Origin: Rhizophagus irregularis
Taxonomy: Eukaryota; Glomeromycota; Glomeromycetes; Glomerales; Glomeraceae
NCBI RefSeq assembly: GCF_026210795.1
Contig: NC_089460.1
Location: 124,001 to 188,000, forward strand
Direction: 5' to 3'
DNA length: 64,000 nucleotides
This document shows, piece after piece, positions 6,425 through 49,110 of this stretch (position 1 is its first letter; every line of letters begins with the position of its first letter). The notes beneath the pieces were generated by a model that saw only the letters and a program-made list of their open reading frames with translations, did not search any database and was not told the DNA's origin. A program made the translations under genes and the position numbers.

Positions 6425-6850
6425 AAAAAGGAGTATTTTTTTAAGATTTGTAAGTATTATATTACGAATCTTAAATTTTTTTTCTTTTTTATTATTATGG
6501 AACGGTTTACTAACCGTTCTTTTCTTTTTTTTATAGGTTCAGGTGAACTTTTGACAAATGAAAACCAAGATTCGTAAGTAAGTACAAATCTTGGTTTATT
6601 TATTTTTCTTTTTTTTAAAAAAAATATTACGAACGGTTACTAATAACCGTTCTTTTCCATTTTTTAGGTTTCGGGTGGGCTTCTGAAGAAGGAAAACCAA
6701 GAAACCAAGATTTGTAAGTAAGTACGAATCTTGGTTCTTTTTTTTTTTGTTTTTTTTTAATATATGAACGGTTTACTAACCATTCTTTTTTTTTTTATAG
6801 CTTGTTCGGGTGGGCTTTCGAAGAACAAAAACCCAACATATCGGCGGATT
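6425..6850 (+). repeat. Array A1 of intron-like units
   Basis: Three units. Each has a T-rich tract ending TATAG or TTTAG, then an exon-like block (6537-6573, 37 nt; 6668-6713, 46 nt; from 6801), then GTAAGTAAGT. The donor-like site sits in the loop of a hairpin (ACCAAGATTCGT ... ACAAATCTTGGT). A second hairpin (GAACGGTT ... AACCGTTC) precedes the T-tract. Blocks share GGGTGGGCTTCTGAAGAA. The array is closely related to 12376-12725 and to a reversed unit at 46613-46712. It lies just upstream of the C2H2 gene. Confidence 0.65.
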
Positions 6851-7194
6851 TGTCTATTCTGAAATTATAGGTTAAAATAAAGATTTTCCTGAACAGATCA
6901 TGCTCAGAATTGTACTGTAACACTAGTAAATCAGATGATAAGTTGTCATCTGATTAAATGACCAGCTGAAGTAAAAAATTTTTGTCGCGAACCAAAATTA
7001 TTAGACAAAACATAGTCGTGTAAAAACCCATTTCTCTTACAAAAAACCCATTTCTCATATTCCACCAAAATTTTTATCTTCCAGATTAACAAGTAGGTTT
7101 TTTTTTGAATATATATCAATAAAAAAGAAAGGACTCGTCAAAAAATTTTATATAATTTATTTTATTTGGGTTAATATTGAATTTTTCAGGTATA

Positions 7195-7840
7195 ATGGCT
7201 TATATATTACCTCTTACTCCAATTTCGCCCATAAGTTTTACCGAAGATATTTTACAATGCTCTGTATGTAAAAAGACATTTAAATCTAAGCGAGGTTTAA
7301 GTCAGCATAAAGCAATTATACGCCGATATAATTCTTCTCGCGTAGGCTTTTACAAGCTTCCAAAAAATTTTATAAATGAATTTAAAAAAACACTAGTTTT
7401 TTTAATTCATCGCCAACTTCCTTGTCATTTTACCAAAATTGGATTAAAGGCTGTCACTGTGGCCTGCACTGAAAGTCAGTTTTTTGCTACATTTGGTGGT
7501 AATATTCATCACTATTCTAACAAATCTCGTGTTTATAAGTGCATCTTTGGGGGCCAGATGCATCAAGTAAGCTAGCGCAGGTCTTTGGTGATACAAATTG
7601 GAGAACCAAATTCTATCATGGAAATAAAGTAACTTCGGTGGTGACCAATCTTGATGATATAGATACAGAAGAAGAAAATCCTCTTGATCGGAAGTGAAAA
7701 TTTAAAATTTATTCACAAAGGAACTCACGATATAAACGAGGACAAGTAATTATTGAATGGAAACCCTGACAAGAAAAGGATGTAAAGAGTAATAAATGTG
7801 AAGGTGGATTTTTACATATCCATTTCTGGATTACAAAAAA
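7195..7840 (+). pseudogene. C2H2-type zinc-finger protein, frameshifted
   Basis: The frame opens at ATG 7195, just after a TTTTTCAG acceptor-like site at 7182-7189. Residues 16-40 hold a finger start (CSVCKKTFKSKRGLSQH), but the fourth ligand is not evident (HKAIIRRY). The body (LPKNFINEFKKTLVFLIHRQ, then VYKCIFGG) matches my memory of a large, uncharacterised AM-fungal family. A one-base loss near 7548 shifts the frame: the continuation PDASSKLAQVFGDTNWRTKF is in another frame up to a TGA at about 7696. Similarity goes on (GQVIIEWKP, KCEGGFLHIHFWITKK) with more stops to about 7840. The function is unknown. It could act in DNA binding, but that is only inferred from the finger. Confidence 0.6.
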
Positions 7841-8235
7841 AAGAATAATAGATCATTAAGTAGATAAAATAAAAAAAAAGAAATGTAAAGAAATATATTT
7901 TTTTCCGGGTAAAAATAAAAGAAAAACTTTTTTTGCATGAGTAGATTCAATTATAGAGAAAGCCAATAAATTAGGTATCTCCTTTCACCAGATTGTGTTA
8001 CATCTTCAGTTGATCAATATTGAAAAGAAGGTTACAAATTTAAAATAATTAAATATAGAAAATTTAATAGAACAAATTATTTATATTTTTTTTTCCAGCT
8101 AATTTTTAGAAAGTACTTACATTACATGAATTTAGATTTATAAAATAAAAATGAACATATTAAAAAGACTTGGTTGCACAATCACCTAAATTAATGAGCT
8201 ACGGTTTTGAATATACTAAAAGGTTTCATTTGTGA

Positions 8236-8760
8236 AACAAAAGAATTTCCACCCATACATACTTGCACTCCCGCTTTTTATTAAAGTCTCAAAGTCCGGC
8301 TCATAAGCTCATTAAAACTACAAAAAAGTAAAGAAAGAAGAAATGTTAATATGTTTCTCAAATCAAATAAAAAACCTCCCCTCTTATACTTACTTTACTC
8401 ACTCCCGCCTTCTATTAAATTCTCAAGTCCAGTTCGTTAAAGCCAGCACTCCTACGAAAAGAAAGAAACGTTAATACGTTTCTCAAATCAAAACAATAAA
8501 ACCTCCCTCTTATACCTACTTACACTTCCGCTTTCCATTAAATTCTCAAGTCCAGTTCGTTAAAGCCGGCATTTCTACAAAAAAGAAAGAAGAAACATTA
8601 ATACATCTCTCAAATCAAATAAACAAAACCTCCCTCTTATACCTACTTACACTTCCGCCTGTCATTAAATGCTCAAGTCCCGTTCGTTAAAGCCAACATT
8701 CCTACAAAAAAGAAAGAAGAAATGTTAATACGTTTCTCAAATAAATAAATAAAAAATATA
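8236..8760. repeat. Tandem repeat, about 130 bp x 4
   Basis: Four consecutive diverged copies of a unit containing CCTCCCTCTTATACCTACTT, CATTAAATTCTCAAGTCC and GTTCGTTAAAGCC, ending in an A-rich AAGAAAGAAGAAA stretch. No coding frame is conserved between copies. Confidence 0.8.
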
Positions 8761-9425
8761 TACATGCATATACTCAATATACATACCCATTCTTCCGTTA
8801 TATGTTTAAAGCTGGTGTTCTTACAAAATAAAGTAAGTTTGTCATTGATTTTCTAAAGACTAGAAAATATATATTTTAAAGTTTTTTTTTTTAAAGAAAA
8901 AGTCTTCTTTTTTGAAACGAAAAAAAAAGAATTTTAAAAAATGAAAAAAAAATTTTTAAAACGAAAAAAAAAATGAAAAAAAAATTTTTAAAACGAAAAA
9001 AAAAAATGAAAAAAAAATTTTTTTAAAATAAAAAAAAAATTTTCAAAATAAAAAAAAATTTTAAACCGAAATTTAATATTTAAACCAAAAAAAATATTTA
9101 AACCAAAAAAAAAAAATTTTCTTTTTTTAGCAAAATCGGCTGTTTGTTTGTAAACAAAAAAGGTAATATCAAACAATATGCTTACTATTTAAAAAAAACT
9201 TAAATTATAAGTTGACGTTATAATACTAAAAATAGATTTATTTATATAGTTATAAAGTATAATCAACAATAATAGTACGGATATAAATAAATTTGAGTAT
9301 GACGATTCCGGTTGCTTTTAAAAAAAAAAAAAAAAATTTTTATTTATTTTTTTTTTATTTATTTTTTTTCATCTTATTACATTTAGTTTAATTTTTTTTT
9401 TTGAACAATACGCAAAATTATAATA
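8761..9425. repeat. A-rich low-complexity and AT-rich spacer
   Basis: From about 8870 to 9130 the sequence is built of long A-runs with interspersed CG, TTTTT and ATG (AACGAAAAAAAAAATG units). The rest is AT-rich spacer with a poly-A/poly-T stretch near 9320-9400. No gene seen. Confidence 0.6.
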
Positions 9426-11706
9426 ATGCCAAAAGAAAAAACTATAAAAAGAACCTGTAATAATATTTCCAAGGAAATTACCGAATATCCAAAAACAAAC
9501 GTTATATTGTACACTGACAGAAGACGAAGCTACCAATATGTAGTTAAAATGGAAGGTCTATATCCTCAGCCTTCAGTTTTGGCCTTTTCTCAAGGAAAAA
9601 ATAAATATAAAATTCCTGATTGTTATTGTGTGGAAACTACATGGGGTCGTGGTAATAACAAACGTACAGTAAAATGCTCTATCAATTATGTAAGAGATAA
9701 GCCGCATTTTAGGATTATGTATGGGTTGGATTTTTCAGAAGAGGTTTGTTCAAACATGTCTTCAACAGCAGCAGCAAATGCCGTTGTAAGAGTGAGTATT
9801 ATTAAAATATTTTTTAATTAAATTTTAAATATTATAAATTATTTATTTATTTTTTTTTTTAGAAGCTTTTTCCTAACAATGAGAAGACATTAATATCAGG
9901 CATACATCTTTTTGGAATTCACCTGAAAACATTAAAACAAGTGAGAGAAAAAAAAAAGAGAATATTAATCAATCGAAACCATTAAAACCACTTGATCTTT
10001 GTAGTAAGTCAATGGTATATAAAAGGCAACGAAATTTTGGAGATCAATTAAAAGAACAAGTCCAAATTAAAGGAGTTAAAATTTATGGTGAAGATCAAGT
10101 CACTCTTAAGCGAATTTTGTATAATGTTAATCACACCGACTTTCAAATCAATTATGGTTTAAAAGATAATGAAGAAAAAGAAAAAAAGCTTACATCAATA
10201 GTACAAATAATTGACCAAAATTATATTCCTCGTGAAGGCTACCGGGCTTTGACTGCAATAGAACCTGATTTAGAACGTGAATGGATAGTATCAGATCGAT
10301 GACATAAAATTACAAGAATTATGGATCAAAAAATTATGATCAGCATTATTAATATTCCCATTGTTCCAACTTTAAATGAATTAGATTTTGATGAAAGTTC
10401 AAACATTTTAAATTCAGAAATAACTGAAATAAATAATATTTCAAATGGTGGGCATCGTAGTGCAAAAGATATTTTGAAATATATTATACCAGCTCTAGCT
10501 CTTAATGGAGTATTGGACGTAAATGATCCAATAATTCATTTGAGAATATCAGGAGATGGGCGCAACGTAGGAAGAAGACTTAAACAAGTGATGATCACCA
10601 TGACAATTTTGAACGATATTCAAAATATTCATAAACCTGACTACCATTATACCACAGTTCTTTTTCCTGGTATAGAAAATTATGAGCTTTTAGAAATTAT
10701 GATGATGCCCTTTATCCAAGAATTAGATGATCTTAAAAATTATGGCCTAAAAATTGATGAAATTGTTTGGAAATTTGAACTATATTTTAGTTCAGATTGG
10801 AAATTCCTATCAATTTGCCTTGGATTTAATGCAGCAAATTCAAATTTTTTTTGTCCTTGGTGTCAAATATCCAAACATGGCCAAAATAATAACCAAACAA
10901 ATTGGAAAATAAGCAAGGAGATTGAAAAAATTAATGAATACCCAGGTCATAACAAAAGGCCTCTTTTTTACATGATTTCTTTAAATAACTGGGTTCCAGA
11001 TGAGCTCCACATCATGCTTCGTATTTGGGATCGTCTTTGGAGTTTGGTCATTTCAGAATTGAAAGAATCCAATCAATTTGATGATGTATGTCGTAAAGAA
11101 ATTATGCAGGAAATGAGCCGAATCAGTGTAAATTTCCAATTTTGGAAGGAACATGGAGCTGATGCATGGAATCACACGTCATTAATGGGTGATGACAAAT
11201 TAAAAGTTTTAAAAAATTTTAATTTAGGTCGAATTTTACCACCTACAAGAGCTAAAAAAATTCGTGAATTATGGAATAGGTTTAACCAAATTTATTTCAA
11301 TCTTAAAACAAAAGATTACGATGTACAACAATTCCAATTTGAAGTTGAAGATTGGCTAGAATTGTTCTTAACTCCAGATAGAATTATTCCCAACTCAAAT
11401 CGTATTGAAAAAGGATTGTATAGTCCAAGTTCAATTACGCCATATATTCATGTTCTTGTTTGCCACATATCTGAGTTCATGGAAATACATCAGAAATGGG
11501 GAATGAAAGCGTTCTCATGTGCACCTGTTGAGAAAAAGAACCATCAACAGGTCACTCATTTTTTTCGACAAACTCTTAAAGGTGGTGGTAGTAAACACAA
11601 ATTGGTAATAAGAGACATTCTTGAATATGAAAATAGGTCTCTTTTTTACCTATTTAATGATAACACAATTTCTTCAAAACCAAAGAAACTTCATATTGAA
11701 GATTGA
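9426..11706 (+). pseudogene. Transposase-like gene with CMC-type motif order, broken
   Basis: Exons 9426..9791 and 9863..11706 are joined by a 71-bp intron (GTGAGT...TTTTAG). Two lesions break it. Between about 9913 and 9920 a one-base indel shifts the frame (before: LISGIHLFG; after: NSPENIKTSE). A TGA at 10300-10302 sits in frame between SDR and HKITRIMDQK. The long C-terminal part has, in order, an acidic ISGDGRNVGRRLK, then FSSDWKFLSICLGF, a CPWC pair, DELHIMLRIWDRLW and VEKKNHQQVTHFF. In Tnp2 transposases the order is the same: Asp, SDVPxxRK, CxxC, DxMHxLFLG and FERxNG. I infer an RNase-H-fold DDE transposase with a zinc-binding insertion. The exact family is unknown to me. The N-terminal 190 residues have no recognised domain. 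Confidence 0.6.
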
Positions 11707-12375
11707 AAAATAATTTTGGTTTTATTAATTTAGTGAGAAGTCAATTTTATATTTTGTTTAAATGAAACATTATTAAATATTTTAATCATTTATTTTAATA
11801 TAACTTTAATGCATTCAATTTTTTTAATTATTATACCAAAGTGTAACAAAAGACTGTAATCCTATGTAAAGTGATATGTTATTGATTAAAATATCAAGAA
11901 TCGGATAATGGGACGTTGATCCAATCAAATTGTGCACGTTATGCACTTTAGACTGTGTAACAGTTTCTGTTTCCCATTAGAAAAAAAAATAAGGTATAAA
12001 ATTATGATACGATGACAATATTAAGATTTAATAAAATTAAAAAATTCGTTAAAATTAATTTTTAAAAAATTTATTAGCAATGTTCACTATGCTAATAATA
12101 ACTTGTTAGGTTTGAACATATAAAAAAAATTACATAATTTATCAATAAACTAAAGATTCATTAACTAAATAAAATAATAAAAAAGTTTTTTTAATTGTAT
12201 TGAAATGCAATGTTAATTCTGGCCGGAATTAACATTATTTTAGCCAAAACTTAATTTATAATAATGACAATAATTTTACTTAAATTTTTTGTTTCGAATT
12301 AATACCCTAACTTTACTGCATCTTATGTAACACTTTTTGCCAAAAATAACTTAAAAATTAAATATATCGGGATAA
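11707..12375. other. AT-rich intergenic
   Basis: No gene seen. It holds one copy of the dispersed TTCTGGCCGGAATTA motif near 12216-12230. Confidence 0.4.
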
Positions 12376-12725
12376 GTAATCAAATCAGCCGATATGAAGA
12401 TTTGTAAATACGAATCTTTAATTTTTTTATTTTTTTATTATTACAAATAGTTTATTAATCATTCTTTTTTTTTTTTATAGCTAGTTTGGGTGGGCATCCG
12501 AAGAACGAAAACCTAAAGATTCGTAAGTACGAATCTTTAATTTTTTTTTATTTTTTATTATTACGAATGGTTTATTAACCATTCTTTCTTTTTTTTATAG
12601 CTAGTTTGGGTGGGCTTCTGAAGAACAAAAATCTAAAGATTCGTAAGTACGATACGAATCTTTAATTTTTTTTATTTTTTATTATTACGAATAGTTTACT
12701 AACCATTCTTTTTTTTTTATAGAAT
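12376..12725 (+). repeat. Array A2 of intron-like units
   Basis: Two full units plus partial ones, close relatives of array A1. Each has a T-tract ending TTTTATAG, an exon-like block starting CTAGTTTGGGTGGGC and ending AAAGATTC, then GTAAGT. The donor-like GTAAGT is enclosed by a perfect hairpin (AAAGATTCGT / ACGAATCTTT). A second hairpin (GAATGGTTTA / TTAACCATTC) lies before the next T-tract. The array lies just upstream of an exon of the DDE-like gene, as A1 lies upstream of the C2H2 gene. Confidence 0.65.
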
Positions 12726-13369
12726 GTCAATAATAATTAATTAATTTAATTTACCTTAAAATTATGGAAGTCTTAGGATATAATCATATAAATTTTTTGC
12801 TTCTTATAGAATCTATGAGAGATATAAATCCACCTAGTTTTCCTGATGCATTTGACATTCACAGGTAAAACGCTGACCAATCGGGTACCTACCCGATTGG
12901 TAACTTTTTTTTTGATCAGTCACCTGATTTATTCAATAGTTAGAAATTGGTGTACACTTCAATCAGGTATCAATCAGGTTAATACCCGATTGATAACTAT
13001 CGTTCAGTTTAAATTTACTGATTGATTTCTATTGTTTCAATTAGACTATTGATAAACTATTTTTCTTTAACTAAAATTAAACTATTTTATACTATTGAAA
13101 TTTACACTAACATTTTTTTCAAACATTTACTTTTGAAACTTAAAAAAAAGTTTAAACTATTTCATACTATCTTTAACATTTTTTTTCAAACATTTACTTT
13201 TGAAACTTTTAAAAAAATTTTTTTTTTTAGGAAATTGGTTCCGATTTGGATACCAGAATCTTACAAAAGTTTCAAATATTTTACTTTCAAAACTTTATTA
13301 AACTGAAAAAACCATTTATTTGAAGATATTAATAAACGATTTTTAACATTTTTTTTTAACATTTTATTG

Positions 13370-14350
13370 TAGGAAATCGGTTATAACGAATCCCATAGAT
13401 GAGTTTCAAAAAATAATTTTTTGAAACTCACTTTTTTTTTTAATATTCAATTGTAGGGAATCGGTTATAACGAATCCCATAGGTGAGTTTCGAAAAATAA
13501 TTTTTCGAAACTCACTTTTTTTTTAATATTTAATTATAGGGAATCGGTTATAACAAATCCCATAGGTGAGTTTCGAAAAAATTTTTCGAAACTCTTTTTT
13601 TTTAATATACAATTATAGGGAATCGGTTATAACAAATCCCATAGGTGAGTTTTGAAAAATAATTTTTCGAAACTCATTTTTTTTTATTATTCAATTGTAG
13701 GGAATCGGTTATAACGAATCCCAGGTGAGTTTCAAAAAATTCTTTTTCGAAACTATTAAAAAACGTTTTTAACGTTTTTTTTCTAATACACTATTATAGG
13801 GAATCAGTTACAACGAATCCCATAGGTGAGTTTCGAAAAAATTTTTCGAAACTCTTTTTTTTTAATATACAATTATAGGGAATCAGTTATAACGAATCCC
13901 ATAGATTAGTTTCGAAAAATAATTTTTTGAAACTATTAAAAAAACGTTTTTAACGTTTTTTTTTATTATTCAAATATAGGGAATTGGTTACAACGAATCC
14001 CATAGGTTAGTTTCGAAAAATAATTTTTCAAAACTATTAAAAAACGTTTTACCGTTTTTTTAAAATGTTTTTTTTAATATTCAATTATAGGAACGAATCC
14101 CATAGGTAAGTTTCGAAAAATAATTTTTCGAAACTATTAAAAAACATTTTTAACGTTTTTTTTCTAATACACTATTATAGGGAATCGGTTACAACGAATC
14201 CCATAGGTGAGTTTCGAAAAAATTTTTCGAAACTCTTTTTTTTAATATACAATTATAGGGAATCGGTTATAACGAATCCCATAGATTAGTTTCGAAAAAT
14301 AATTTTTCAAAACTATTAAAAAATGTTTTAACGTTTTTTTAAAACGTTTT
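13370..14350 (+). repeat. Array B1: 11 intron-like units around a 26-nt block
   Basis: Eleven units of 75-105 bp. A typical unit is a T-rich tract, AATATACAATTATAG, the 26-nt block GGAATCGGTTATAACG+AATCCCATAG, then GTGAGT or GTAAGT, and a hairpin GAGTTTCGAAAAAT/ATTTTTCGAAACTC. Longer units add a second hairpin, AAAAAACGTT/AACGTTTTTT. The block itself is an imperfect palindrome. Some units have lost the GT (GATGAG, GATTAG), and one block is cut to about 17 nt near 14090. 26 nt is not a multiple of three, and joined blocks would reach a TAA in the third copy. So a coding function is not supported. Confidence 0.75.
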
Positions 14351-15834
14351 TTTTAATACATATGTGCCGATTTTTGGAATTAGTCTAAATTAAGATTTTT
14401 ATAAAAACTTAATATTTTAGTAAGATTAACATTACACAAATCTAAATTAAATATGTGTTATATATTTACGTAACTCAGATTTATTAAAAAATAAAAAAAA
14501 ATTTTTTTAATCAATATTCAAAAATAACGGTAATAACCACTTCTTTTTCCCCATCACTCCCATCACTTTTCCATCATTTTTCTATTCACTTTTATTAAAT
14601 ATGACAAAAAAGTTTATAAGCAAATATAGCAGTTATTTTTAAGTGGTAAGTAAAAGAAAAAACTTAATATTTTATATACATAGATAAGACATATTTTTTC
14701 ATAATTTTTAGCATTAATTTATTGTTTTTTCTTTGTAAAAAATACATGCAAATAAAAAATAATTATGATGTAAAATAGTTGTAAAATGAATAATAAGATA
14801 TTCTTTTTTTTTCAAAATAACTAATTATATATTTGTTTTTTATCTTTTAAAATTATTTTATTAGATTTATTCTACTAAAATCCTTAAATGGCAAATAAAA
14901 TCTTTTAAATAAAGTAAAAGAATTTGGGATTCTCTTATGAAAGCATTTTTTGGTAAGAAATAAAATTTTCAGATCGGACTTTATGCAGGTGACAAAATCG
15001 TGCATTATTATTCCTGGAGATATGCTAACGTCATCATTTTACATTCATTTGAAAGCTGAGAATTTGCTCTATCGTAAGAATCAAAGATCAGGAAAATTGG
15101 ATCACTGGATGAGGCGTAATTAACGATCAAAGTCAAATCAAATTTAAAAATTAAAAATAAATATATTAGACGTAATTATTCACAATCCAGTGATTCAATT
15201 CATTCGATTTTAGGCTTATTAGATAGACCTCAATTTTCTCTTTCAAATGAATATAATTTCATTCGTGTAGCTTGCATCTACAGGTATTTAATAAAATTTT
15301 TTATATCAGATTTTATCAAATTTATAAAATTTTATATTAATAATATAATTGATGATTCCTAAACATCTACATATATTAAACGAATTATTTTAAATTTATT
15401 TTAAAGATAAAAGTTGGCATCACCTTAGGGAGCAAAGATCATTCAAATTGAATCACTATATGTGAAGTAATTAATGATCAAATTTAGATAAAATTCAATA
15501 ATATACTGAACGTGATTACTGAACAACTAGTGATTCAATTCACTTGATTTTAGATTCATTAGATAGATCTCGATTTTCTCTTTCAAATGAATGTAAATTT
15601 ATTTGTATAGCTTATTTCTACGAAGAATTATCAATGATTTTGTCATGAGAGTTATATTTGATCTTTTAAATTTTAATGATATCTTATATTAAAAAAAAAT
15701 TAAAAATTATATAATTAATTAGTTTTTTTTGCATTATCTGGTATAAATTTATTATTCTTATATAAATGATAATTTATATTTGCTTTAATAAAATTATTTT
15801 TGTGTAAAAAAATTAGATTCCAAGGATCGGCCCA
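14351..15834. other. Spacer between arrays with a diverged duplication
   Basis: It has no gene. Segments near 15090-15290 and 15440-15640 are diverged copies of each other (shared CTCGATTTTCTCTTTCAAATG and TGATTCAATTCA motifs), about 350 bp apart. The rest is AT-rich. Confidence 0.5.
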
Positions 15835-16835
15835 TATGATTCAATTATCAATTATAGGGACAAATCCCATAGGTAAGTTTCGAAAAATAATTTTTCGAAA
15901 CTATTAAAAAATGTTTTTAACGTTTTTTTTCTAATACACTATTATAGGGAATCGGTTATAACGAATCCCATAGGTGAGTTTCGAAAAAATTTTTCGAAAC
16001 TCTTTTTTTTAATATACAATTATAGGGAATCGGTTATAACGAATCCCATAGATAAGTTTCGAAAAAATATTTTTCGAAACTTTTAAAAAAACGTTAACTA
16101 ACGTTTTTTTTTTAATTCTATTATAGGGAATCGGTATAACGAATCCCATAGGTAAGTTTCGAAAAATTAACATTTTTTTATTATTCTATTATAGGAAATC
16201 GGTTATAACGAATCCCATAGATAAGTTTTGAAAATTATTTTTCGAAACTTTTAAAAAAACATTAACTAACATTTTTTTATTATTCTATTATAGGGAATCG
16301 GTTATAACGAATCCCATAGATAAGTTTCGAAAATATTTTTCAAAACTTTTAAAAAAACGTTAACTAACGTTTTTTTTTTAATTCTTTTATAGGGAATCAG
16401 TATAATGAATCCCATAGGTAAGTTTCGAAACATATTTTTTTGAAACTATTAAAAAAACGTTAACGTTTTTTTTTAATTCTTTTATAGGGAATTGGTATAA
16501 CGAATCCCATAGGTAAGCTTCGAAAAATATTTTTTTGAAACTATTAAAAAAACGTTTTTAACGTTTTTTTAAATGTTCTATTATAGGGAATCGGTATAAC
16601 GAATCCCATAGAATCTCATAAGTAATAAGTTTCAGAAATTTTTTTTCGAAACTATTAAAAAAAATGGTAATAAACATTTTTTTATTATTCTTATTATAGG
16701 GAATCGGCTCTGATAGATGTATATACCGGAATTTCATAAGTAAGTTTTAACTTTTGAAACTTTTTTTAAAAAACTTTCTTTAATGTTTTTTTATTTCTTT
16801 TGTAGGGAATTTGCTCCAACCTGCTTTACAGAAAC
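15835..16835 (+). repeat. Array B2: about 9-10 intron-like units
   Basis: It has the same unit as array B1. Blocks start near 15856 (truncated), 15948, 16025, 16125, 16195, 16295, 16392, 16488 and 16588. Near 16700 a longer boundary block (GGAATCGGCTCTGATAG and on to TTTCATAA) is followed by GTAAGT. The last acceptor, TTTTGTAG, precedes GGAATTTGCTCCAACC at 16806. Several units have GATAAG instead of GTAAG. The boundary block and the one after TTTTTTAG at 13230 resemble each other, so they may be the ancestral longer exon-like block. Confidence 0.72.
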
Positions 16836-16874
16836 TTACCATTTTTAATCAATATAGAATCGATATCGTTAAGT

Positions 16875-17215
16875 TTATCTTAACGATATCATTTCAATAT
16901 CATTTCAATATCATTTCAATATCGATTTAATATTGATACGATATCGAAATAAAGTATTATCACTTCGATATCATTTCAATATTAAATTGATATTAAAATG
17001 ATATCGAAATGATAATTAAAATAATATCGAAATGATATCTTTAAATTAAACTTAAAGATGTTGTTTTGATATCATTTCTATTATCATTTTGATATCATTT
17101 TAATATCGATTTAATATCGAAATGATATCGAAGTGATAATACTTTATTTTGATATCGTATCGATATTAAATCGATATTGAAATGATATTGAAATGATATT
17201 GAAATGATATCACTT
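16875..17215. repeat. Giant near-perfect palindrome of GATATC motifs
   Basis: The left arm (about 16878-17037) and right arm (about 17050-17215) are reverse complements over about 160 bp with few mismatches. The arms are built from GATATCATTTCAATATC-type steps. The centre is near 17040. It would form a long hairpin or cruciform. It contains no gene. Confidence 0.8.
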
Positions 17216-18329
17216 GAAAACTTAAAGTTTCTGTAAAGTGGATACCGGATTCCAGATAAAATTTCAGTATTAGTAGTATTTCTGATTTTGTATTTTTAAT
17301 AATTAATAAATTTAAATTATTAAATGTAATTATTGTAAAATATCAAATAAATTTAAATAAAAATGTATGCAATCGGCAGATTTCTTATTGTTATAAATTT
17401 ATCAAAAAGTTATCAATCAGTATACTGATATGTCAAATAGTAAATATCCAGTAAATATCCTATTAGTAACTATTAATACCCGATTATACTCTATTGAATA
17501 TCCCGATTGGTACCCGAGTATCCTCCTTTTGCGCCATCTTTTGGCAGCAATCGGGTTTACCGATTGATGAAAATTTTTAAAAAAATAGGGACCAATCAGG
17601 TGGAATTCGGTCACCTGATTGGTTTCCAATTTGACATCGTTCGACTAGTGATTATGATGAGAAATACACAACAACTAAAACTTCTACAGCACTGTACTGA
17701 ACATATTAGATGCGATTTGTTATATAATGAAATTATTGATCTTTTATGTAATCACAAAGTTGGTTGGAAAGGAGGTATTCATTAAACTTTAGGAAAGGAA
17801 TTTGTAACACGTGTTGCAAATGCTCTTTGGTACATACATTGATTCATATTTAAAATTATTACAATTTTGTTTCTGTCATATGCCTGCATTTTTTAAAGAA
17901 TTGGCAACATATGCAAGTGATAATACTGATAGAAATACATATAACCTCACATATTACACTAGCCATCACAAAAAAGAACCCATTTCACATCAGAAGCTGA
18001 ATCTTTTAATTGAATCATTGAAACTCTCTATAGGTCAACCTTGGGTAAATAATAGTGAATGGAATAATACTATTTCTGCTATATTTCTTTAATAGAAATT
18101 ATGCGAAAATATAGTGAACATTTTGTAAAAAGTAAAACAATAATGGCTGCCATTCATCATAATGATGAATCAGCACGTAATCCAGCAAATAATGCTAGTA
18201 TGTTTCGAGTTCTTGGTTGTAAAGAAGATGATCTTAATGAACAATATCAAGAGTTAAATGATATGATTTTACGATGTAGTTTTTATCAATATATGGATAT
18301 TTATTCTTATCTTTCTATAGACATTATGA

Positions 18330-18558: not shown

Positions 18559-21500
18559 CAGTGTTGGCCTTTTGGACTATTGGACTTTTGGACCATTGGA
18601 CTATTGGAATATTGGACTTAGTCCATTCCAATTCCATTAAAATTTGGACTATTGGACTATAGACCTTATCCAACAGCTATAAGTTTTATATGTAATTTTA
18701 GCAAATATATAAATAATTACAAAAGTTATAATTGCAAATCATTTTTTATTGATATTTATTAAAATTTTTTATTGAATTCATCAATTATGCTTAGCATTTT
18801 TATTGATATCTAAAATTTTTTTAATTGTTACCTAAAATAAAAGCTGACAAATAATTGGGTTCCCCTAAACTTTCAATAAAAATATCTTGAAGTTTCCATT
18901 TAGAATTTTGATCTCTAGCAGGATGAGGCAAATTTGATATATTTGTAACATTAATTTCAAGTTCTTCATCATCATCATTACTATCACTTTCATTATCATT
19001 ATCATATTCTTCATTTGATTTATCTTCCAACATATTAATCCATCTTGACACTACACTTCTCCAATTACTTTCAGTTTGAACATTAGCATCTGTTTCAATA
19101 AATTCACTTGATGATTCATCATCTGACACATTCAGATCATCTGATGCATTTGGATCTTCATTTTCATTTACTGGAAGTGCAACACCTGTACTTCAAAACT
19201 TTAATGCATCTTCATCAATTTTTTTTTGTTTAAGTTTTTGTTGCATTGAAGCATGTAACTGAGTCATTCCTAAAATCTTCTCATGCTAAATAATTTAAAA
19301 AAATATTAATAAATGATATAATTATATTTATTATAATTAAATTACTAATAAAAATACTTACTGCTAAACGATTTCGCCGCTTTGAGTGTAACCATCCCAT
19401 TGTGAAAAAAGGTCTTTCAAGAGATGCTGTAGTTACTGCAATTGAAAAAATACGTTCAGCAACACGATAAAGTTCTTTAGAATAACCACGAACATAATTC
19501 CAAAATTCTAAAACATTATTATTAAATTGTCGTGAAGTTGCATCATTATAGGGATATTTTTTTTGTCGATAAGCCTCTAATTCAACTAATATTACAGTCA
19601 GATCTTCATTAAACCAAGCACAATAGTAATAAGTAACCCATTTACCAAGATGTGGAAAAGACAAAGTTTCAATTTCAGGATTAAATTTATCAATACGATA
19701 TCCTGGATAAAGTAAAAATGCCAATAATAAAAGAGGTTGCTCCCAATCACTCCACCTTTTTTCAAGTTTTTTTAAAAGCTTGTTTTTAAGATTATTATTA
19801 TCTAATGAATGTAAAACTATAACTAAATTGCCAAAGCAATGGAGAACATCATGAAGTTGTGAATTATGTCGTTGAAGTTGATTAAGTGCAGCACAATAGG
19901 GAAGTACTAATGTTTCCAATTCTTTAAGCTTTTTCCACCAATTATTATCAGAAATGCAGTTAAGATATTCGTTTGGAAAATCATAAAGATCATCACTTTC
20001 TTGTTCTTCAATTTTTGTTGCTAAATTCTAATAATTTTAATTTTTTTAGTAATAGAATAATATAAATTTTATTAAAAAAAATCAAGACTTACTTTTAATG
20101 CAGATTTTGATCACAATAAACTTGCAAAACAATAATATTGGGAATTCCAACGAGTATCATTAGGTACAATTAATGCATAATATTTATTTTTATACATTGC
20201 TGCTTGCTCTTCTTGTAATTTTCCAATCCATACTTTTGCACGGTTAAAAAAACTAGCAATTGCAACAGCTTGCTCACCAACTTTTGTAAGAGAATTTGAT
20301 TCTTTAAATATATCACCAACACATAGATTCATTTGATGAGCAAAACAGGGTAAAAATAGTTTATCACGATAAAGTAATTGAAGTTGTTTCCTATTAATAA
20401 TATATTTATAAATTTAATAATTAAATTAATTAATTAAAATTAATTAATTAAATATAATTAAAATTAAACAATAAAAAACTGAAAATACACACCATGCAGA
20501 AGCATTTTCTGATGCTGAATCTGTAACTAGCCCATTAACTCTTATATTTTCTTGATTCAATTCTGCAAAAAGTTGTTGTGTAATTCGAATAATCTCATTG
20601 GCAATACCTCTATTACCGCCGCAATTGATTGCTTTCCAAATAATCATTTCGCCTGTAGATGTAATAAGAACTATACCAAAAATATGTTGTCGTGCCACAT
20701 TTTTCCACCCATCAAAAGCGAGGGTTACACCAGACAAATCATTTTTAGCATTATCAAGTAATTTTGTTGAAACTTCGTCAGTTGCATCTTTTAAAATACG
20801 TCCTGATAATACTTTTCGAAAAGGCAATGCAATCATTGGATTTAACCAATGAAATAAATTTTTAACTGCAGGATCCTCAATCCATCGGAATGTAAAGCCA
20901 CATGAAACAGTTACATCCAATAAAAGTTGTTCAAGTTTCTGTTCTTGAATAATTGTTAATGGACAAAATATATAATTATCCAGTGTAATCTCATCCAAAT
21001 TTGATGTTTCTTCTTCAAGTATTGGATTATCATTGTCATCATCATCAGATAATCCATCATCAGATGATTCTGTATGACATCTTTTTTTAAATGGTTTACT
21101 CTTCGCACCATCTTTTGCTGCGTCATCAAGAAGTTTTGCTATTTGTTGTGAACTATATTTCTGCGCAAAATTTGGACAGTTTTTAATATGACGTGCACAT
21201 TCTTTTTTAGTATTTGTAAACTTTAACTTATATGCTTCATCTTTTCCAATAATACTAATACAAGCTCGACATACTGCATACTTGTTGCTTTTATTTACCT
21301 TTTTTGCTGCGTGCAAAACTACAACATATGGTGTTAAAAAATGTGGTTGACGGCCCATAATATTATGATAATTAAAATTAGAAATGAGTACCCTTATCTT
21401 TTCTTTGTTTTATTTTGAAGATGATTGCAAAAAGAGATTAAATAAAAAAATTTTTTTTTTTATATTTTTCAATTGATTGATCATCCTTTTAACCAATTAT

Positions 21501-30728: not shown

Positions 30729-33700
30729 ATGTCTAACCCTCGAGCTGTTGCCAAATCTAATAGAACTGACCTGATAACAAGAACAAGAACTAAAGTATAC
30801 TGCTTTTGTAAAGAATGTAATGGCAAGTTAGTGGACCCAAGAACGAAAACTAAATATGAGTTAAAATATAATATATCTTATGCGAATAATAATTTTAGTA
30901 ACAATTATCAAGAAGCTGAGCCTTCTAATGCTAATCCATCTAATAATTTTTGTGATGATTATCAAGAGGCTGGGCCTTCTGATGTTAAACAATATACTGA
31001 ATAATGCAATGGAATGCGAACCTTTACTCGAGATGATACCTATACATGAATCGGCAAAATATAAATTCACAAAGAAAGGGAAAATATCTGATTACGTTCT
31101 TGAAAATTTATTACCGGATAACGGAAAAGATATGAATAATGATCAAGATAGAGATTTTGAAGACTATGACGACGAAAATAGAGATTCTGAAAGTTTTGAA
31201 GATGATGACGAAGATGGTATTTCTGGCGATTTTGAAGATGATGACGAAGACAGTAATTTTGGATTTGAAAGCGATGAAGAATATAGAGACTCTGAAGATT
31301 TTGAAGATGATGATAAGGAAGAAGTCAATTTTGCGTCAAAAAATTTTGCCAAAACTTCCTAATATCAACAATGATAATTATACCTGGATTATCTTATGGA
31401 TATTACAATATCAACAAAGATATAAGCTTCCTAATGTTTCAATAGATTCTTTATTTAAATTTCTAAGGTTTTTTCTTTTAACGGTAGATGAAAATAAATT
31501 TTTATCTTTTCCTTCCTCCCTGTACGTAGCCAAAAAAATATTGGGAATATCAACGAATATTATCAAATATGCCGCATGTAATAAATGTCACAAATTGTAT
31601 GACATAAATGAAATATCAAACACAACCGAAGTACCAACATGTAGTTTTATAAACTACCTGAATCATAACAAAGAAAGATTTCGACAAAAATGTAATAACC
31701 CTCTAGTCAAAAAAATAGACAGTAATAAAGATGGTGGCAATAATCCAATTATCCGTCTGATAATAACATTTCTATTAGTTAACATTAGGCGCCAATTAAC
31801 CCTATTTTTCGGTCGCAATGATTTTGGGAAATTGGCTATACGTCAAAAGTGGGCAGAAAGGAAAAACGAAACTGAAGCCTTATTTGACATCTATGATGGG
31901 AGGATTTGGATGAGTTTTGAAGATGGCAAAGGAGAACCATTCTTCAAAAAAGAATACGCCGAAACTCATATCGGATTAATGCTAAACATGGATTGGTTTC
32001 AACCCTATATAAATTCCCAATATTCTGTCGGTGTAATATATGCCATTATTTGTAACTTACCTCGAAGCGAACGTTTTAAGCCCTACAATATTCTCACACT
32101 AGCAGTTATACCCAGTCCTAAAGAGTCAAAGAAACATGAAATCAACAATTACTTATACCCCATCATAAATCAGCTGAATCGGTTATGGGAAGGGTATCAT
32201 ATAAAAACCTACAAATATAACAACGGTCGTTTTATCTGTGGCGTGATAGTAGGTTGTGCTAGTGATGTTCCTGTGACTCGAAAATTATGTGGTTTTATAT
32301 CAGCTCAAATCGCATGTTATCGATGCTATAAATCAGCAAACTTGGTAAATAATCAACCCAATTTTGGTGGGTTTGAAGACATTGACGACTGGTTTGTTGA
32401 GAAAGATATTAATTTAATAAGGGAGAAGGCACGTGAATGGAGAAAATGTGCAACCGAAGAATCGCGTAAGGCTCATGTCTTACAGTATCATGTTCGTTGG
32501 TCGGAAGTATACCAATTACCTTATTTTAATTCTGTGCGCTTTTGCGTAGTTGATTCCATGCACTGCCTCTTTCTCGGGGTAGCAAAGTGGATTGTAATGA
32601 AGCTCTGGATCGGCGAAGGTATATTAAATAATAAAAAGCTCAAAATAATGCAAGAGCAAGCCGACTTGATAAAATTTCCAAGTGACCTCGGTCGCCATCC
32701 CGTTAGAATAGCCACTGGCGACAGCTTTTCAAATTTTACGGCGGACATGTGGAAAACGTTTGTTCTAATTTTTGCAATACCTATCACATGGAATCTCTTG
32801 GGAGAGATCGATCAAAAAATTCTTGCTTATTTCGTACGTTCCTGTAAAATTTTAACAAATCGGGAATTACAAAAAAGCGAGCTAAACGAAGCATTTACAA
32901 AACTACTCGAAATGAATAAATTAATTGAAAAAAAATACAGACAAAAAAAAATAAGCCCAAATCTGCATTTATGCCTTCACATATGTGAATGCGCTTTAGA
33001 TTATGAACCTTTATCCTCATTTTGGTGTTTTAGCTTCGAACGAATGAACGGAATTCTAGGTATGATATATTAATTTCGCCGATTTGAAAATCGTATTGTT
33101 TTTTTAATTTATACAGATTGACCAATTTATTTCTTAAGAACATAGGATCTTATAAAAATAGCAAACGTAATATTGAACCAGAGCTATTAAAAATAATGGT
33201 TGAAAGTTTCTTTTTAAGGGTAGAGTGTATCACGTGATACTTCATATAGATCGACTTGTCAAATTCCTTATTACATAGTAGCACTATTTTCTGTACAATA
33301 TAAACTTTTGTAATACTTAATATAAATAAATAAAATTTATATCGTTAGAAAGCCACAATTTTGAACTTTTATTTTTTTAATTAAAAAAACTTTTTTTATC
33401 AAAAAATCTTTAAAAAACACCTAATGAAGTTGCGACTAGGCATATATGTTTTTGCGACTAGGCAATCTTGAATTTTATTGGTTGTTAGTATCAGTTGTAT
33501 ATTTAAAATGTAAATAAATGATCGGCAAACCTATAGTAAAATAATTTGCCACCCGCTACACATAAAAAATGATCGACATATACTTTACCCTTAAACTATT
33601 ACCTCACAAATTGCGATAGCAATATATTAAACACCACTTTGGACATTATAAAGCCTAGAAAATCTGCAGGAAGCTTGGCTGCACTTGACGATTTTACAAG

Positions 33701-34534: not shown

Positions 34535-34570
34535 TTATAAAACTATTAAAGGGTTATTATCATTGTTGTT

Positions 34571-34608
<38 letters not shown>

Positions 34609-39838: not shown

Positions 39839-39999
39839 TTAATATATCCTAGCTTCTTTTTCATCGTACTCATCATTATTGTTAGAACCAAACACTTCTT
39901 CCTCCGATTTTTCCTCATATCGCTCAGACTTTTTTGGCTTAATTCTTTTTTGACATTTTGCTGGCTGTTCAAGATCTGTCTGCCTATGAATGGCTTTAG

Positions 40000-42400: not shown

Positions 42401-42415
42401 TATTATTGCTATTAT

Positions 42416-44905: not shown

Positions 44906-44929
44906 GAAGTCAAAATTAAAGCCCAAAAG

Positions 44930-45215
44930 TAGAAATATTTCGACTTGGGAAGGTCAAAAGTTAAAATTAAAGTCGAAATGGTCAAAATTACATCATAGTC
45001 ATGTGATTTTTATAATTATAATTTAATATAAAATTTTAAACGTGAATAACTCCGTCAATATTGATGCTACAGATATGAAATACATATCGTTGGAATCCTC
45101 TCAATGAGCTGAATCCAACCGTGTAAAGATCATAAAAATCGAATCACTGGATGCGGAGATCGTTAACTTTGAATTTTAAAATTATTGTTTATTATAAAAA
45201 TTAAAGACTATTTAA
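44930..45215. repeat. Dispersed repeat (partner of 5580-5836)
   Basis: It contains GAATCCTCTCAATGAGCTGA and AACTCCGTCAATATTGATGC. The second motif is repeated at 45235. See 5580-5836. It truncates Tnp2 copy b. Confidence 0.6.
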
Positions 45216-45266
45216 TACCAAATTTTAAACATGAATAACTCCGTCAATATTGATGCTACAAAATAT

Positions 45267-45480
45267 CACTAGTTGAAAAAGGACAATTCGGCCTAAATTT
45301 GACCAGGTCGAATATAGGTCGAATGATGGTCTAACCTGTGTCAAATTGAGGTCAAATTTTTGGGCGCATTTGAAGTGCCAATCGTTTCAAATTCGGACAT
45401 TATTCAACCATTATTTAAGCTTAAATTGACCAATATTCGACCTTAAAACTTTAAGCCGAATTATGGTCTAATAACAACCC
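45267..45480 (+). mobile_element. Possible CACTA-type terminus
   Basis: CACTAGTTGAAAAAGGACAA is followed by TTCGGCC and sub-terminal GGTCGAATATAGGTCGAAT repeats. It is the second copy of the end found at 5838. The opposite end was not found. Confidence 0.4.
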
Positions 45481-45635
45481 ATTTATTTACGATTTTTTTT
45501 ATCAAATTTATTATTAAATAAATGTATTTATTAATGCTTAAATACTTTATAATTATATTATTATTATTGCATCTATTTAATTTACAAAAAATATTTCTAA
45601 TTCAAATACAATTCCACAATTACATAATTCATGTA

Positions 45636-46595
45636 CAGTCAACTCCCTCTATAGTCACTCCCGTTATAGTCACATTCTACTATATAGTCATACCAGTTGA
45701 ATGTTCAAAACACTTTATTATTAAAATCTATCCTATATAGTCACAATCTATCTATAGTCACTATCACACCTATCCTCAAAAATCTTATATTAAAAAGAAC
45801 CGTTTATAATCACAGTTATATAAAAAATATATTAAATAACTTGGCATCTAATAATCGTACAATGATGTATCATAGCTTGTTAGAATCGTCTCACTGAGAC
45901 GAATCGAATGGTGGTAGTTTTATCCTTTTCCGATCACTGGCTGACGAGTTATTCAACAAAATGTTAAACATCGGCATTATAATATTTCTTGATTTACGTT
46001 TACTGCGCCATTTAACATTTTGCTAGATTTCTCGGTACCTAGTGATTGTAAAAAGACGATTTATAGCTCGTTGGAATCGCCTCATCGAGACGAATCGAAT
46101 GGTGGTAAGCTCATCTCTCTGTGATCAATATTGACGGAGTTATTACTTAAAAACCATTTAATATTTTTTAATTTCGGAAATTGATCTAGTGATTGGATTT
46201 CGATGTATCTATACCATTAGATTCGTCTCATCAAGACGAATCGAATGGTAGTAAGATCGTCTTTCTAGGATCAATATTGGCAGAGTTATTACACAAAAAC
46301 CATTAATATTTTTTTAATTTCGGAAATTAATCTAGTGATTGGATTTCGACGTATTTTATACCATTAGAACCGTCTCATCAAGACGAATCGAATGGCGGTA
46401 AGATCATCTCTCTACGATTAATATTGGCGAAGTTACGATACAATAAAGTTTTAAGTATAATTCTGGCTAAAATTATGTTGATTTTTGGCCGGAATTATGA
46501 TATACAAATATAAGAAATTTTTTATATAGTCACATCTCTTTATAATCACCAAATATGGACTGTCCCAAATGTGTGACTATAAAGAGAGTTGACTG
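45636..46595. mobile_element. Pogo/Tc1-like non-autonomous element, 960 bp
   Basis: It starts CAGTCAACTCCCTCTATAG and ends CTATAAAGAGAGTTGACTG, with TA on both sides (45634-45635 and 46596-46597). TAGTCAC motifs recur near both ends. The interior has no transposase, only three diverged units with CGAGACGAATCGAATGGTGG and ATCAATATTGACGGAGTTAT, related in style to the inverted-repeat elements further right. Confidence 0.85.
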
Positions 46596-46612
46596 TATTC
46601 GTATATATGAAT

Positions 46613-46712
46613 TTTTGATCATTCTTTGGCAATCCACCCGAACCTATAAAAAAAAGAGAAGAACTGAACGGTTAGTAACTGTTCATAATATTAAAAAAAA
46701 ACCAAGATTGTT
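46613..46712 (-). repeat. Reversed single unit of array A family
   Basis: Read on the minus strand it gives AACCGTTCAGTTCTTCTCTT, then TTTTTTATAG and GTTCGGGTGGATTGCC. This matches the T-tract, acceptor and block of the 6.5-kb array. So the unit is dispersed, not only tandem. Confidence 0.6.
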
Positions 46713-46744
46713 TCGCATTTTTTTAAAATTTTTGAGCATTAAAA

Positions 46745-47504
46745 ATTAAAAATTCTGATACATGAATTTATTCGTTGTCCAATGGTCATACAAAAATGAA
46801 TTAGGACTCATTAGATTTGTCTCGATGAGACGAGTCAAATTGTGGTAAGATCACATCTTTAGCATCGATAGATAGCTTGCTAATGCCAATTTTTTATAAA
46901 TCATTTAGCATAAATCAACTTATGATCTATTGATGCTAGAGACATGAACTCACCACCATTTGACTTGTCTCATTAAGATGAGTCCAATGAGTCCTAATTT
47001 ATATTTGTACTACTATTGGATGACAAATAAATTCATGTATAAATTCATGTATTAGAATTTTTAATTTTTAACGCTCAAAAATTTTAAAAAAATGCGAAAC
47101 TTGACATTATTTGCCATCCAGTAGTTGTACGTGGACAATTTAATATTCATTAGATTCGTGTCACTGATACGTGTTGAATGGTGCTAAGATCATGTCTCTA
47201 ACACTGATAGATGGCTTGCTAATTCCAATTATTGATAAATTATTTAGCGTAAGTTAACGTGTGATCTATTGATGTTAGAGATATGATCTTACTACCATTT
47301 GATGCGTCTTGTCGAGATGAATCTAATGATATATGGCTTGACTTTGTACGATCACTAGATGGACGGCTATTCGATTTTTCGCATTTTTATAAAAATTGGA
47401 TTTAACTGAATTGAACTGCCAGTTTTTCAGTTCAGTTTTTACGGATTTTGGCTTTAATCTGAACTATCTATAATCTGGACCAAACTGACCTGTTCAGAGC
47501 TTTA
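46745..47504. mobile_element. Fragment of the TAAAGCTC inverted-repeat family
   Basis: Arms such as TCTCGATGAGACGAGTCAAA and GACTTGTCTCATTAAGATGA alternate as in 59796-62490. The right end, CTGTTCAGAGCTTTA at 47490-47504, is the family's TIR. The left end is missing. It is more diverged than the 60-kb copy. Confidence 0.6.
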
Positions 47505-47589
47505 ATTTCTATGCATAAATAGTAAATAAACAAATTAAATTAATTACAACCAAAAATGTGAAAAAGAATTCAAATTAGTTTCCTTTAAA

Positions 47590-49110
47590 AGAATATTATG
47601 TATTGAGTAATATAAACTCAAAAAGGACCTGCGGTCTTGGTTGTTCCTGTAAATAATCTATCGTTACGTGCTCCTGTGCCTTCTCCGTTTTTACTAAAGT
47701 CGCCATTACCGACATGTGATCTGAATGCTTTACTGATCCCATTATGGAGCTGATACCTATATAAAAAATATGAGAAAAATTAAAAAAAAATAAATTAAAA
47801 AAATAAGTTTCAAATTTCAAATCGAAACTTACCAAATTAAAGTCCCAAAACTGAAGGAATCGATACCTATAAAAAAAATATGAGAAAAATTAAAAAAAAA
47901 TAAATTAAAAAATTGTTTTGAAATTCAAATCAAAACTTACCAGATCAAAGTCTCAAAGCCAAAGGAAATGACATCTATAAAAAAAATATGAGAAAAATTA
48001 AAAAAAATAAATTAAAAAAAACATAAGTTTCAAAATTCAAATTGAAACTTACCAAATCAAAGTTCTAAAGCCAAAGAAGCTGACATCTATAAAAAAATAC
48101 AAGAAAAATTAAAAAAAAATATAAGTTTCGAATTTCAAATCGAAACTTACCATATTGGTATATTCAAGTCCTAAAGTTGAAAACTGATATCTACAAAAAA
48201 AGAGAAAAATTAAAAAAAAATTAAAAAAAAATATAAGGTTTGCTTTAAAACTTATCGATCCAAATCTAAAGAAAGAAGTCGATATCTAAAAAAAAAAAAA
48301 ATTAAAACGTTTTAAAAAAATTGAAGAAAAAGTTTCAATGCTTTTGCTTTGAAGTTTACCAATCCAAAGCCCAAAAGAAGAAGCCGATACTTAAAAAAAA
48401 ATAATTTTTTTATCAAATAAAAAAATCAAAAAAAAAAATGATTCCAAAGTTTCAATTTAATAGTTCAAGTTATCAAGAAAGAAGCCAATATTTTTAAAAA
48501 AAGAAATAAAGTTAAACCAAATTTTTTTTCAAAAGAAAAAATTTACTAAAAAAAAATTTTGAATGAAACTTACCTATTCAAAGCCCAAGGTTGAAGCAAT
48601 ATCTACAAAAAATAAGTTTCGAAGGCAAAGAGCAAAGTCAAAGCCAATATATACTTAAAAAAAAAGAAAAAAAAAATTAGTTTAAAAAAAAAATAGTTTC
48701 AAAAAAATGAAAACCTTTTGAAACTTTACCGATTTAAGGTGCGATACATATCATAGCACCTAAAAAAAAAGAAAAAAAAATTATAAATTTTATTTTAAAA
48801 AGAAAAATAAGTTTTAATTCAAAACTTACTGATCTAAGGTCTATAAAAGTCGAAGCTGATACATACTTAAAAAAAAGAAAAAAAATTAGTTTTAAAAAAA
48901 AAATAAAGTTCTGAAAGAAACAAAACTTTCAAAACTTTACTGATTTAAAGCGTAACGTAAAAGCTAACACATACTTAAAGAAAAAAAAATTTTTTATTTT
49001 AAAAAAAGACAAAAAAAAAATAAAGCTTTCAAAAAAAATGAAACTTTTGAAACTTTACCGATCTAAAGTATACCGATACTTAAAAAAAGAGAAAAAAAAG
49101 TTTAAATTAA
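47590..49110 (-). repeat. Array C: minus-strand intron-like units
   Basis: On the minus strand, exon-like blocks of about 30-41 nt alternate with T-rich introns of 70-90 nt. Three clear blocks are 34 nt (e.g. starting ATGTCATTTCCTTTGG and ending TTTGATCTG). They are followed by GTAAGTTTCGATTTGAAATT, which pairs with GAAACTT downstream (hairpin), then T-tracts and TTTTATAG. At least ten units can be followed from 49080 to 47760, the distal ones degraded. The last acceptor opens a larger frame to about 47590 (HNGISKAFRSHVGNGDF or the alternative frame SVKHSDHMSVMATLVK). The block sequence is unrelated to arrays A and B, but the plan is the same. Confidence 0.65.

What the first reader, a model, noticed from the sequence alone, without database searches (positions are those of the whole stretch)
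6425..49110. Same unit plan in three sequence-unrelated arrays (A, B, C)
Arrays A (6.4 and 12.4 kb, reversed single unit at 46.6 kb), B (13.4-16.8 kb) and C (47.6-49.1 kb, minus strand) have different sequences. All still show an exon-like block of 26-46 nt, GTRAGT placed in or beside a hairpin stem, a T-rich tract, and ATAG. Convergence on one plan suggests selection on splicing-like signals or one amplification mechanism acting on exon-intron units.
Basis: inference. Interest (0 to 1): 0.82.

Follow-up and report, generated by a model that had tools for sequence, protein, structure and literature searches.

The report
Transposons carrying chains of hairpin mini-introns
In a fungal genome, several families of jumping genes carry chains of tiny exon-like blocks separated by short introns whose splice signals look unusually perfect and sit in RNA hairpins, which suggests transposons shaped to be spliced, although no RNA data were at hand to prove it.

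Summary
A and B lie inside CACTA-type DNA transposons: matching 3-bp target duplications flank 21 of 22 A elements and 14 of 19 B elements. C lies in another inverted-repeat element. The two A arrays are one array split by a nested transposon; B is split likewise. In A, donor stems covary in one loop class while the loop GTAAGTAC stays nearly fixed. A introns have GTAAGT in 225 of 310, against 3 of 33 ordinary introns that I predicted in kinesin and chaperonin genes; TACTAAY is in 287 of 310 (rows chosen partly by that motif) against 1 of 33. A genome-wide pattern gave 1,474 matches against 444 for its reversed control; all six regions I opened hold units of this plan. A fourth such array lies in the window. 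Exon-like blocks keep no reading frame, and insertions show no clear sense bias. Splicing is untested, no spliced genomic copies were found, and B and C fit the signals less well. Most likely: non-autonomous transposons carrying tandem structured spliceosomal mini-introns.

The parts
5838..12722 (+). A element: CACTA-type transposon, left inverted repeat CACTAGTCGAAAAAGG at 5838-5853, right end missing, cut by a nested element
   Evidence: complete relatives
6161..6411 (+). purine-rich tandem stretch of the A element, before the first A unit
   Evidence: also seen in L005 and L009
6425..6836 (+). A units, first part
6837..12396 (.). nested inverted-repeat element (CATATCGGCGGATTTG .. CAAATCAGCCGATATG) that splits array A; holds open frames 7156-11706 without a Pfam match for those tested
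8250..8760 (-). array E: fourth array of the same plan (block of about 51 nt, GTAAGT, hairpin GAAACGTATTAACGTTTC, pyrimidine tract, GTAG); not in the finding
   Evidence: the one unit folded gave z +1.75
12397..12722 (+). A units, second part
12860..17650 (+). B element: CACTA-type transposon, ends CACAGGTAAAACG and CGTTCGACTAGTG, target duplication ATT at 12857-12859 and 17651-17653
13349..14358 (+). B units, first part
14359..15838 (.). nested inverted-repeat element (CATATGTGCCGAT .. GGATCGGCCCATATG) that splits array B
15839..16833 (+). B units, second part
45267..46710 (-). fragment of a reversed A element: inverted repeat at 45267 and one unit at 46600-46710
47748..49110 (-). C units
49523..49536 (-). 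start of the C element (CATCAGGAAGTCAC); no other end found in the window

Best explanation
The arrays are cargo of non-autonomous DNA transposons (CACTA-type for A and B, another inverted-repeat type for C). Each unit is a short, probably non-coding exon plus a spliceosomal intron of about 50-100 nt. The donor (GTAAGT in A) sits in or at the base of one hairpin, the branch point (TACTAAY/CTAAC where present) at the tip of a second hairpin, and a T-tract and AG follow. The units multiplied by tandem duplication inside the elements and spread by transposition, with some exchange between families. When an element is transcribed, I expect the spliceosome to remove the introns one by one and leave a chain of mini-exons. 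Shown: the elements, their ends and target duplications, the unit plan, the covarying donor stem in A, and a consensus in A better than in my sample of ordinary introns. Inferred: transcription, splicing, tandem duplication, common descent of most families. Speculative: that splicing benefits the element, for example by export or by escape from RNA silencing.
For: Target duplications: 21 of 22 A elements, 14 of 19 B elements. All 22 A elements carry 6-21 units in one orientation, 0-1 in the other. CTAA in 332 of 372 A hairpins; the first AG after it is TAG in 350 of 372. Donor hairpin with 8-nt loop: loop columns 127-134 of 134 fixed, stem 96% paired with 16 double changes in 30 distinct rows, 0 when slid. 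GTAAGT 225 of 310 in A against 3 of 33 in predicted ordinary introns; folding z -2.1 against +0.2. B: no AG within 20 nt before the acceptor in 164 of 164. Grammar tests. Genome-wide pattern 1,474 against 444; six of six opened regions hold units of the plan.
Against: No RNA evidence. No exon-exon joined copies in the genome for one A and one B junction (0 matches at up to 3 mismatches). B donors are not GT in 46 of 172. B and C give 0 in the strict grammar, and no CTAAY was found in 14 introns of three C loci. The 12-nt donor loop class has 1 double change, as a slid version does, and the branch-point stems are hardly better paired than one slid version. Array E does not fold well. Hairpin-only arrays without donors or acceptors exist (L015 1-1046). 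A units are copies of each other, so counts are not independent. The reversed pattern still gives 444 matches, so part of the 1,474 is chance.
Confidence: 0.7

Rival explanations
1. DNA-level hairpin arrays: the palindromes serve transposase binding, replication or recombination, and the splice-like motifs are incidental or relics.
For: Most parts of a unit are palindromic, the exon-like blocks included. Hairpin-only arrays without donor or acceptor exist (L015). B donors vary G/A.
Against: The order donor, branch point, pyrimidine tract, AG is absent from antisense strands and not reached by shuffles. Loops rather than stems are fixed in the A donor hairpin. CTAAC is the commonest apical 5-mer in six new loci (CTAAY in 22 of 90 hairpins), with 0 of 18 in antisense and 0 of 20 in host introns.
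Confidence: 0.17
2. Introner-like elements: the whole transposon acts as an intron where it lands in a gene, the arrays being helpers.
For: The B left end reads CACAG|GTAAAA (donor-like); A and B right ends read ..CGACTAG|TG (acceptor-like). The window B copy lies in sense in an open frame. CACTA ends can be used as intron ends (PMC4219821, passage).
Against: Open frames of 80 codons or more span 7 of 19 B empty sites (4 sense, 3 antisense; two of the 7 lack a matching duplication) and 13 of 22 A sites (8 sense, 5 antisense; some repetitive): no clear bias, and many sites have no long frame. Internal splice sites would not leave a clean junction.
Confidence: 0.06
3. Protein-coding repeat genes with mini-exons, such as secreted effectors with tandem repeats.
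For: Spliced A chains are open over at least 90% of their length in 9 of 21 elements. SP7-like effectors of R. irregularis have tandem repeats (PMC11333574, passages).
Against: A block lengths leave remainders 0, 1, 2 in 122, 95, 70 of 287. The antisense of the same chains is as open or more. Chains of the six new loci and three C loci are broken by stops. Three-frame openness of A blocks is only slightly above dinucleotide shuffles (23 against 16.9 of 83 clusters, 9 of 300 shuffles as high).
Confidence: 0.04

Closest known systems
CACTA (CMC/EnSpm) DNA transposons, non-autonomous members
   Same: A and B: ends beginning CAC, 3-bp target duplications, elements without a long open frame, tnp2-type transposases present in the same genome.
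   Different: Internal tandem arrays of intron-exon units in one orientation; no such cargo appeared in the paper listings I saw. No autonomous partner with these ends was identified.
Introners (intron-generating transposable elements; PMC9860276, passages)
   Same: Mobile elements that carry splice signals; some derive from DNA transposons.
   Different: Introners make one intron per insertion in a gene. Here the element carries many introns and shows no clear preference for sense insertion in open frames.
CACTA elements spliced from host transcripts (soybean TgmR*, maize Spm; PMC4219821, passages)
   Same: Element ends can mimic splice sites; right ends here read TAG|TG.
   Different: There an intron holding the element, or the element ends, are spliced; here signals are internal and repeated.
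Symmetrical stwintrons of Hypoxylaceae fungi (PMC8469720, listing and start of abstract)
   Same: Fungal introns, repeated in the genome, with symmetry.
   Different: Stwintrons are nested introns in genes, not tandem arrays in transposons. Only the listing was seen.
SP7-like effectors of Rhizophagus irregularis (PMC11333574, passages)
   Same: Probably the same organism; tandem repeats.
   Different: SP7 repeats are coding; the blocks here keep no frame. The SP7 motif was not searched for here.

Membership tests
CACTA transposon (elements A and B) | Terminal inverted repeats beginning CAC | tested here: met
   A: CACTAGTCGAAAAAGG at both ends in 22 elements; no end pair in 3 of the 25 loci examined, and 17 loci had been picked by this repeat. 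B: imperfect pair CACAGGTAAAACG / CACTAGTCGAACG.
CACTA transposon (elements A and B) | 3-bp target site duplication | tested here: met
   A 21 of 22 (exception L025); B 14 of 19 hand-paired elements.
CACTA transposon (elements A and B) | tnp2-type transposase in the element or in a partner with the same ends | tested here: inconclusive
   Longest open frames in the 22 A elements are 93-204 codons, in two B elements 80 and 94. The genome has at least 155 tnp2 matches (capped). Comparing its listed rows by eye, I saw none inside a pair of A ends. No autonomous partner identified.
CACTA transposon (element C) | CAC ends and 3-bp duplication | tested here: not met
   Ends CATCAGGAAGTCAC; 2-bp flanking repeats AG, TA, CT, by eye, in the three copies with both ends (L004, L017, L019). 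Class left open.
U2-type spliceosomal intron (array units) | Donor, branch point, pyrimidine tract and AG in order | tested here: met
   A, strict and loose grammar; 225 of 310 GTAAGT. B and C meet the loose form only.
U2-type spliceosomal intron (array units) | Removal from RNA | not testable with these tools
   No RNA data. Spliced genomic copies sought for one A and one B junction: 0.
Introner | Element inserted in exons, its ends giving the splice sites | tested here: not met
   No clear sense bias at empty sites: B 4 sense and 3 antisense of 19, A 8 and 5 of 22. End motifs compatible in B only.
Tandem-repeat effector gene (SP7-like) | Repeats keep one reading frame | tested here: not met
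   The SP7 motif itself was not searched for.

The most novel reading that the evidence does not exclude
A genome-wide superfamily of selfish elements in this fungus is built of tandem hairpin mini-introns whose loops display U1- and U2-matching signals better than the host's own introns. The elements are selected to engage the spliceosome, as decoys or as a shield against RNA silencing, and trade exon-intron modules among transposon families.
Probability: 0.3. Interest if true: 0.88.

Novelty: new variant of a known kind. Interest (0 to 1): 0.72.

Why it matters
If the units are spliced, these transposons are natural multi-intron RNAs in which structure as well as sequence presents the donor and the branch point. 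That would make testable how hairpins shape splice-site choice, why a transposon would keep many introns, and how tandem exon-intron units arise. It could also explain part of this genome's repeat DNA and warn annotators about false multi-exon genes.

Tried and rejected
SP7-like effectors were considered first and set aside because blocks keep no frame. A first attempt at host introns used a wrong frame condition and is discarded; replace it. The 33 ordinary introns come from 34 adjacent exon pairs of Kinesin (PF00225) and Cpn60_TCP1 (PF00118) matches; one pair gave none, and two further pairs were left out beforehand because one search gave only long introns (268 and 248 nt). They are my predictions, chosen with a score that favours GTAAGT, several with a small margin over the second choice, and the kinesin genes look partly paralogous.

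Biases of the A counts: the hairpins were found by likeness (up to 4 substitutions and one indel) to consensus hairpins that include TACTAA, so the TACTAAY count is raised by selection. The donor was anchored on its stem, not on GT; 60 of 372 hairpins had no anchor, and the 312 rows include off-register ones (for example CAAAGA, CAAGAT), so 254 of 312 GT is a low estimate. In one search the branch-point sets were anchored on their loops, so those loops are fixed by choice. One search takes the best hairpin in a window, often not the branch-point one. The six regions were picked by me from the first places listed (C1 and part of C2), mostly where hits cluster; L091 and L094 hold few units. Introns are defined by GTRAGW, so its donor counts carry no weight; CTAAY was in 20 of its 48 introns. 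The matches can overlap. B ends were paired by hand: 19 pairs out of 45 left and 39 right ends.

Literature: no paper on tandem mini-intron arrays in transposons appeared in the listings. In two R. irregularis transposon papers in which I searched for terms, 'splic' occurs 0 times (PMC8647823, PMC11075540). Subscription papers are not held.
Full report
What was checked. The window is G000:C32:124001-188000 in a genome of 146.7 Mb and 32 contigs. A passage of PMC11333574 mentions chromosomes 1-32 of strain DAOM-197198.

The arrays as seen. Array A has blocks such as CTAGTTTGGGTGGGCATCCGAAGAACGAAAACCTAAAGATTC, then GTAAGTACGAATCTTT (a hairpin with the donor in its loop), an AT-rich stretch, a second hairpin such as GAACGGTTTACTAACCGTTC, a T-tract and TATAG. 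B has 25- or 26-nt blocks in 105 of 108 cases, a longer donor hairpin, and in part of its units a hairpin ACGTTAACTAACGT. C has 34-nt blocks in 21 of 37 cases and a donor hairpin starting GTAAGTTTCGA. The window copy of C shows no clear branch-point hairpin, but a C-type unit in L015 has GAAACGTTCTAACTGAACGTTTC.

They are transposon cargo. Searching the genome with the arrays gave at least 381 (A), 317 (B) and 55 (C) matches. Of 25 A loci examined, 22 have a pair of inverted repeats CACTAGTCGAAAAAGG, and 21 of these 22 have identical 3-bp flanks; the elements are 1,429-4,289 bp long. Of these loci, 17 had been picked by the inverted repeat, so the match of the flanks, and not the repeat, is the test; all 22 elements carry A units, 6-21 in one orientation and 0-1 in the other. 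B lies between CACAGGTAAAACG and CGTTCGACTAGTG with identical 3-bp flanks in 14 of 19. These are marks of CACTA elements. C elements have ends CATCAGGAAGTCAC and, by eye, 2-bp flanking repeats in the three copies with both ends. Open frames in the elements are short. In the window, the A element starts at 5838, is cut by a nested element (6837-12396) and lacks its right end. The B element runs from 12860 to 17650 with duplication ATT and is cut by a nested element (14359-15838).

The plan beyond chance. The grammar test was written after seeing the arrays. Loose form: A1 5, A2 2, B1 2, B2 4, C 4; antisense 0 in all; 0 of 200 shuffles reach these. Strict form: A1 5, A2 1 (1 of 200 shuffles), B and C 0. 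Of 17 other arrays, 8330-8754 gave 2 loose matches on the minus strand and proved to be a fourth array, E; 46074-46435 gave one; 15 gave none. The rest of the window gave 11 loose matches per strand in 59.9 kb.

Loops fixed, stems covarying, with limits. In 26 A loci, the window included, 372 branch-point hairpins were found by likeness to a consensus; CTAA is kept in 332, and the first AG downstream is TAG in 350, within 12-20 nt in most. Among 134 donor hairpins with an 8-nt loop, the loop reads GTAAGTAC with 127-134 of 134 at each position. The stem is paired in 96% of cells with 16 double changes among 30 distinct rows, and 0 when the partner is slid by 1-3 columns. The 12-nt loop class (80 rows) pairs in 93% but has 1 double change, as one slid version has. 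The two branch-point sets show 12 and 6 double changes against at most 5 and 2 when slid, while their percentage paired (73 and 71) is not far above one slid version (63 and 70). Four units were folded: A z -3.1, C-type in L015 -4.8, B -3.2, E +1.8.

Better signals than ordinary introns. I predicted 33 ordinary introns in kinesin and chaperonin genes. Their length (46-154 nt) and AG (24 of 33 TAG) resemble the arrays, but GTAAGT occurs in 3 and TACTAAY in 1, against 225 and 287 of 310 in A, and they show no folding excess (mean z +0.2, n 33, against -2.1, n 40). The sample is small and predicted, A units are copies of each other, and the A rows were chosen partly by the branch-point motif.

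Genome-wide. The pattern GTAAGT-N45-74-TACTAAY-N8-30-TAG has 1,474 matches; read backwards it has 444. Many of the listed rows have other sequences around the motifs. I opened six regions. All contain units of the same plan, from a few (L091, L094) to arrays of roughly ten or more (L089, L090, L092, L093). Their donors, pooled with those of three C loci, often continue TTCGA, TTCGT or TTCGC (23 of 48), and branch-point hairpins of the type GAAACGTTNCTAACGTTTC recur. With the mixed arrays of L007 and L015, this points to common descent of most families rather than convergence. No tree was built.

Coding and insertion tests. A block lengths leave remainders 0, 1, 2 in 122, 95, 70 of 287. Spliced A chains are open over 90% or more in 9 of 21 elements, but the antisense is as open or more. 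Chains of the other loci are broken by stops. Open frames of 80 codons or more span 7 of 19 B and 13 of 22 A empty sites without a clear sense bias. Two A elements (L024, L040) sit in frames that look like tnp2 transposase, the one beside L024 being listed as such. No exon-exon joined copies were found for one A and one B junction.

Mechanism. The best reading is a set of non-autonomous transposon families with internal chains of structured mini-introns, spread by a transposase in trans and lengthened by tandem duplication. A benefit through the spliceosome is conceivable: introns raise mRNA levels in Cryptococcus neoformans (PMC3744415, start of abstract seen in the listing). That such introns shield transposon RNA in this fungus is my speculation. 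The main gap is RNA evidence.

Noticed in passing
window 16885-17211: Large near-perfect palindrome inside the B element: arms of 163 nt, 92% complementary, 1 nt apart.
   Followed up: no
window 31136-33073: Open frame of 645 codons with a Transposase_21 (tnp2) match, E 3.8e-11; its inverted repeats were not found.
   Followed up: partly
window 50956-52122 and 19281-20027, minus strand: hAT-type transposase C-terminal regions (Dimer_Tnp_hAT).
   Followed up: no
window 817-2628: Ordinary host gene: BCAS3-type WD40 protein (PF21034, E 3.8e-23), with short introns near 370-455 and 750-817.
   Followed up: partly
window 60104-62129: Satellite-like array of 327-bp units, 6.2 copies, 94% matches.
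   Followed up: no
L009 1152-4762: A complete A element lies between pieces of other A-type repeats, so A elements seem to insert into each other.
   Followed up: partly
L015 1-1046 and the end of L009 (minus strand): Arrays of hairpins such as GGAACGTTGGCTAACGTTCC alternating with GAAACGTTTTTTAACGTTTC, mostly without donors or acceptors.
   Followed up: no
L007, L015, L089, L093: Arrays of different families run into the same downstream sequence (CCTTGTTATGGTTGTGTCACC .. CAATCCAATTATAACAAG), perhaps a separate small element.
   Followed up: no
L016 (G000:C22:1-6000): A C element lies within a few kb of a TTAGGG telomere repeat.
   Followed up: no
A blocks of the fetched A loci and the window: GAAGAA, a motif known elsewhere as a splicing enhancer (recalled), occurs in 180 of 286 A blocks; the perfect hairpin TTCCGAAGAACGGAA in 19.
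   Followed up: no
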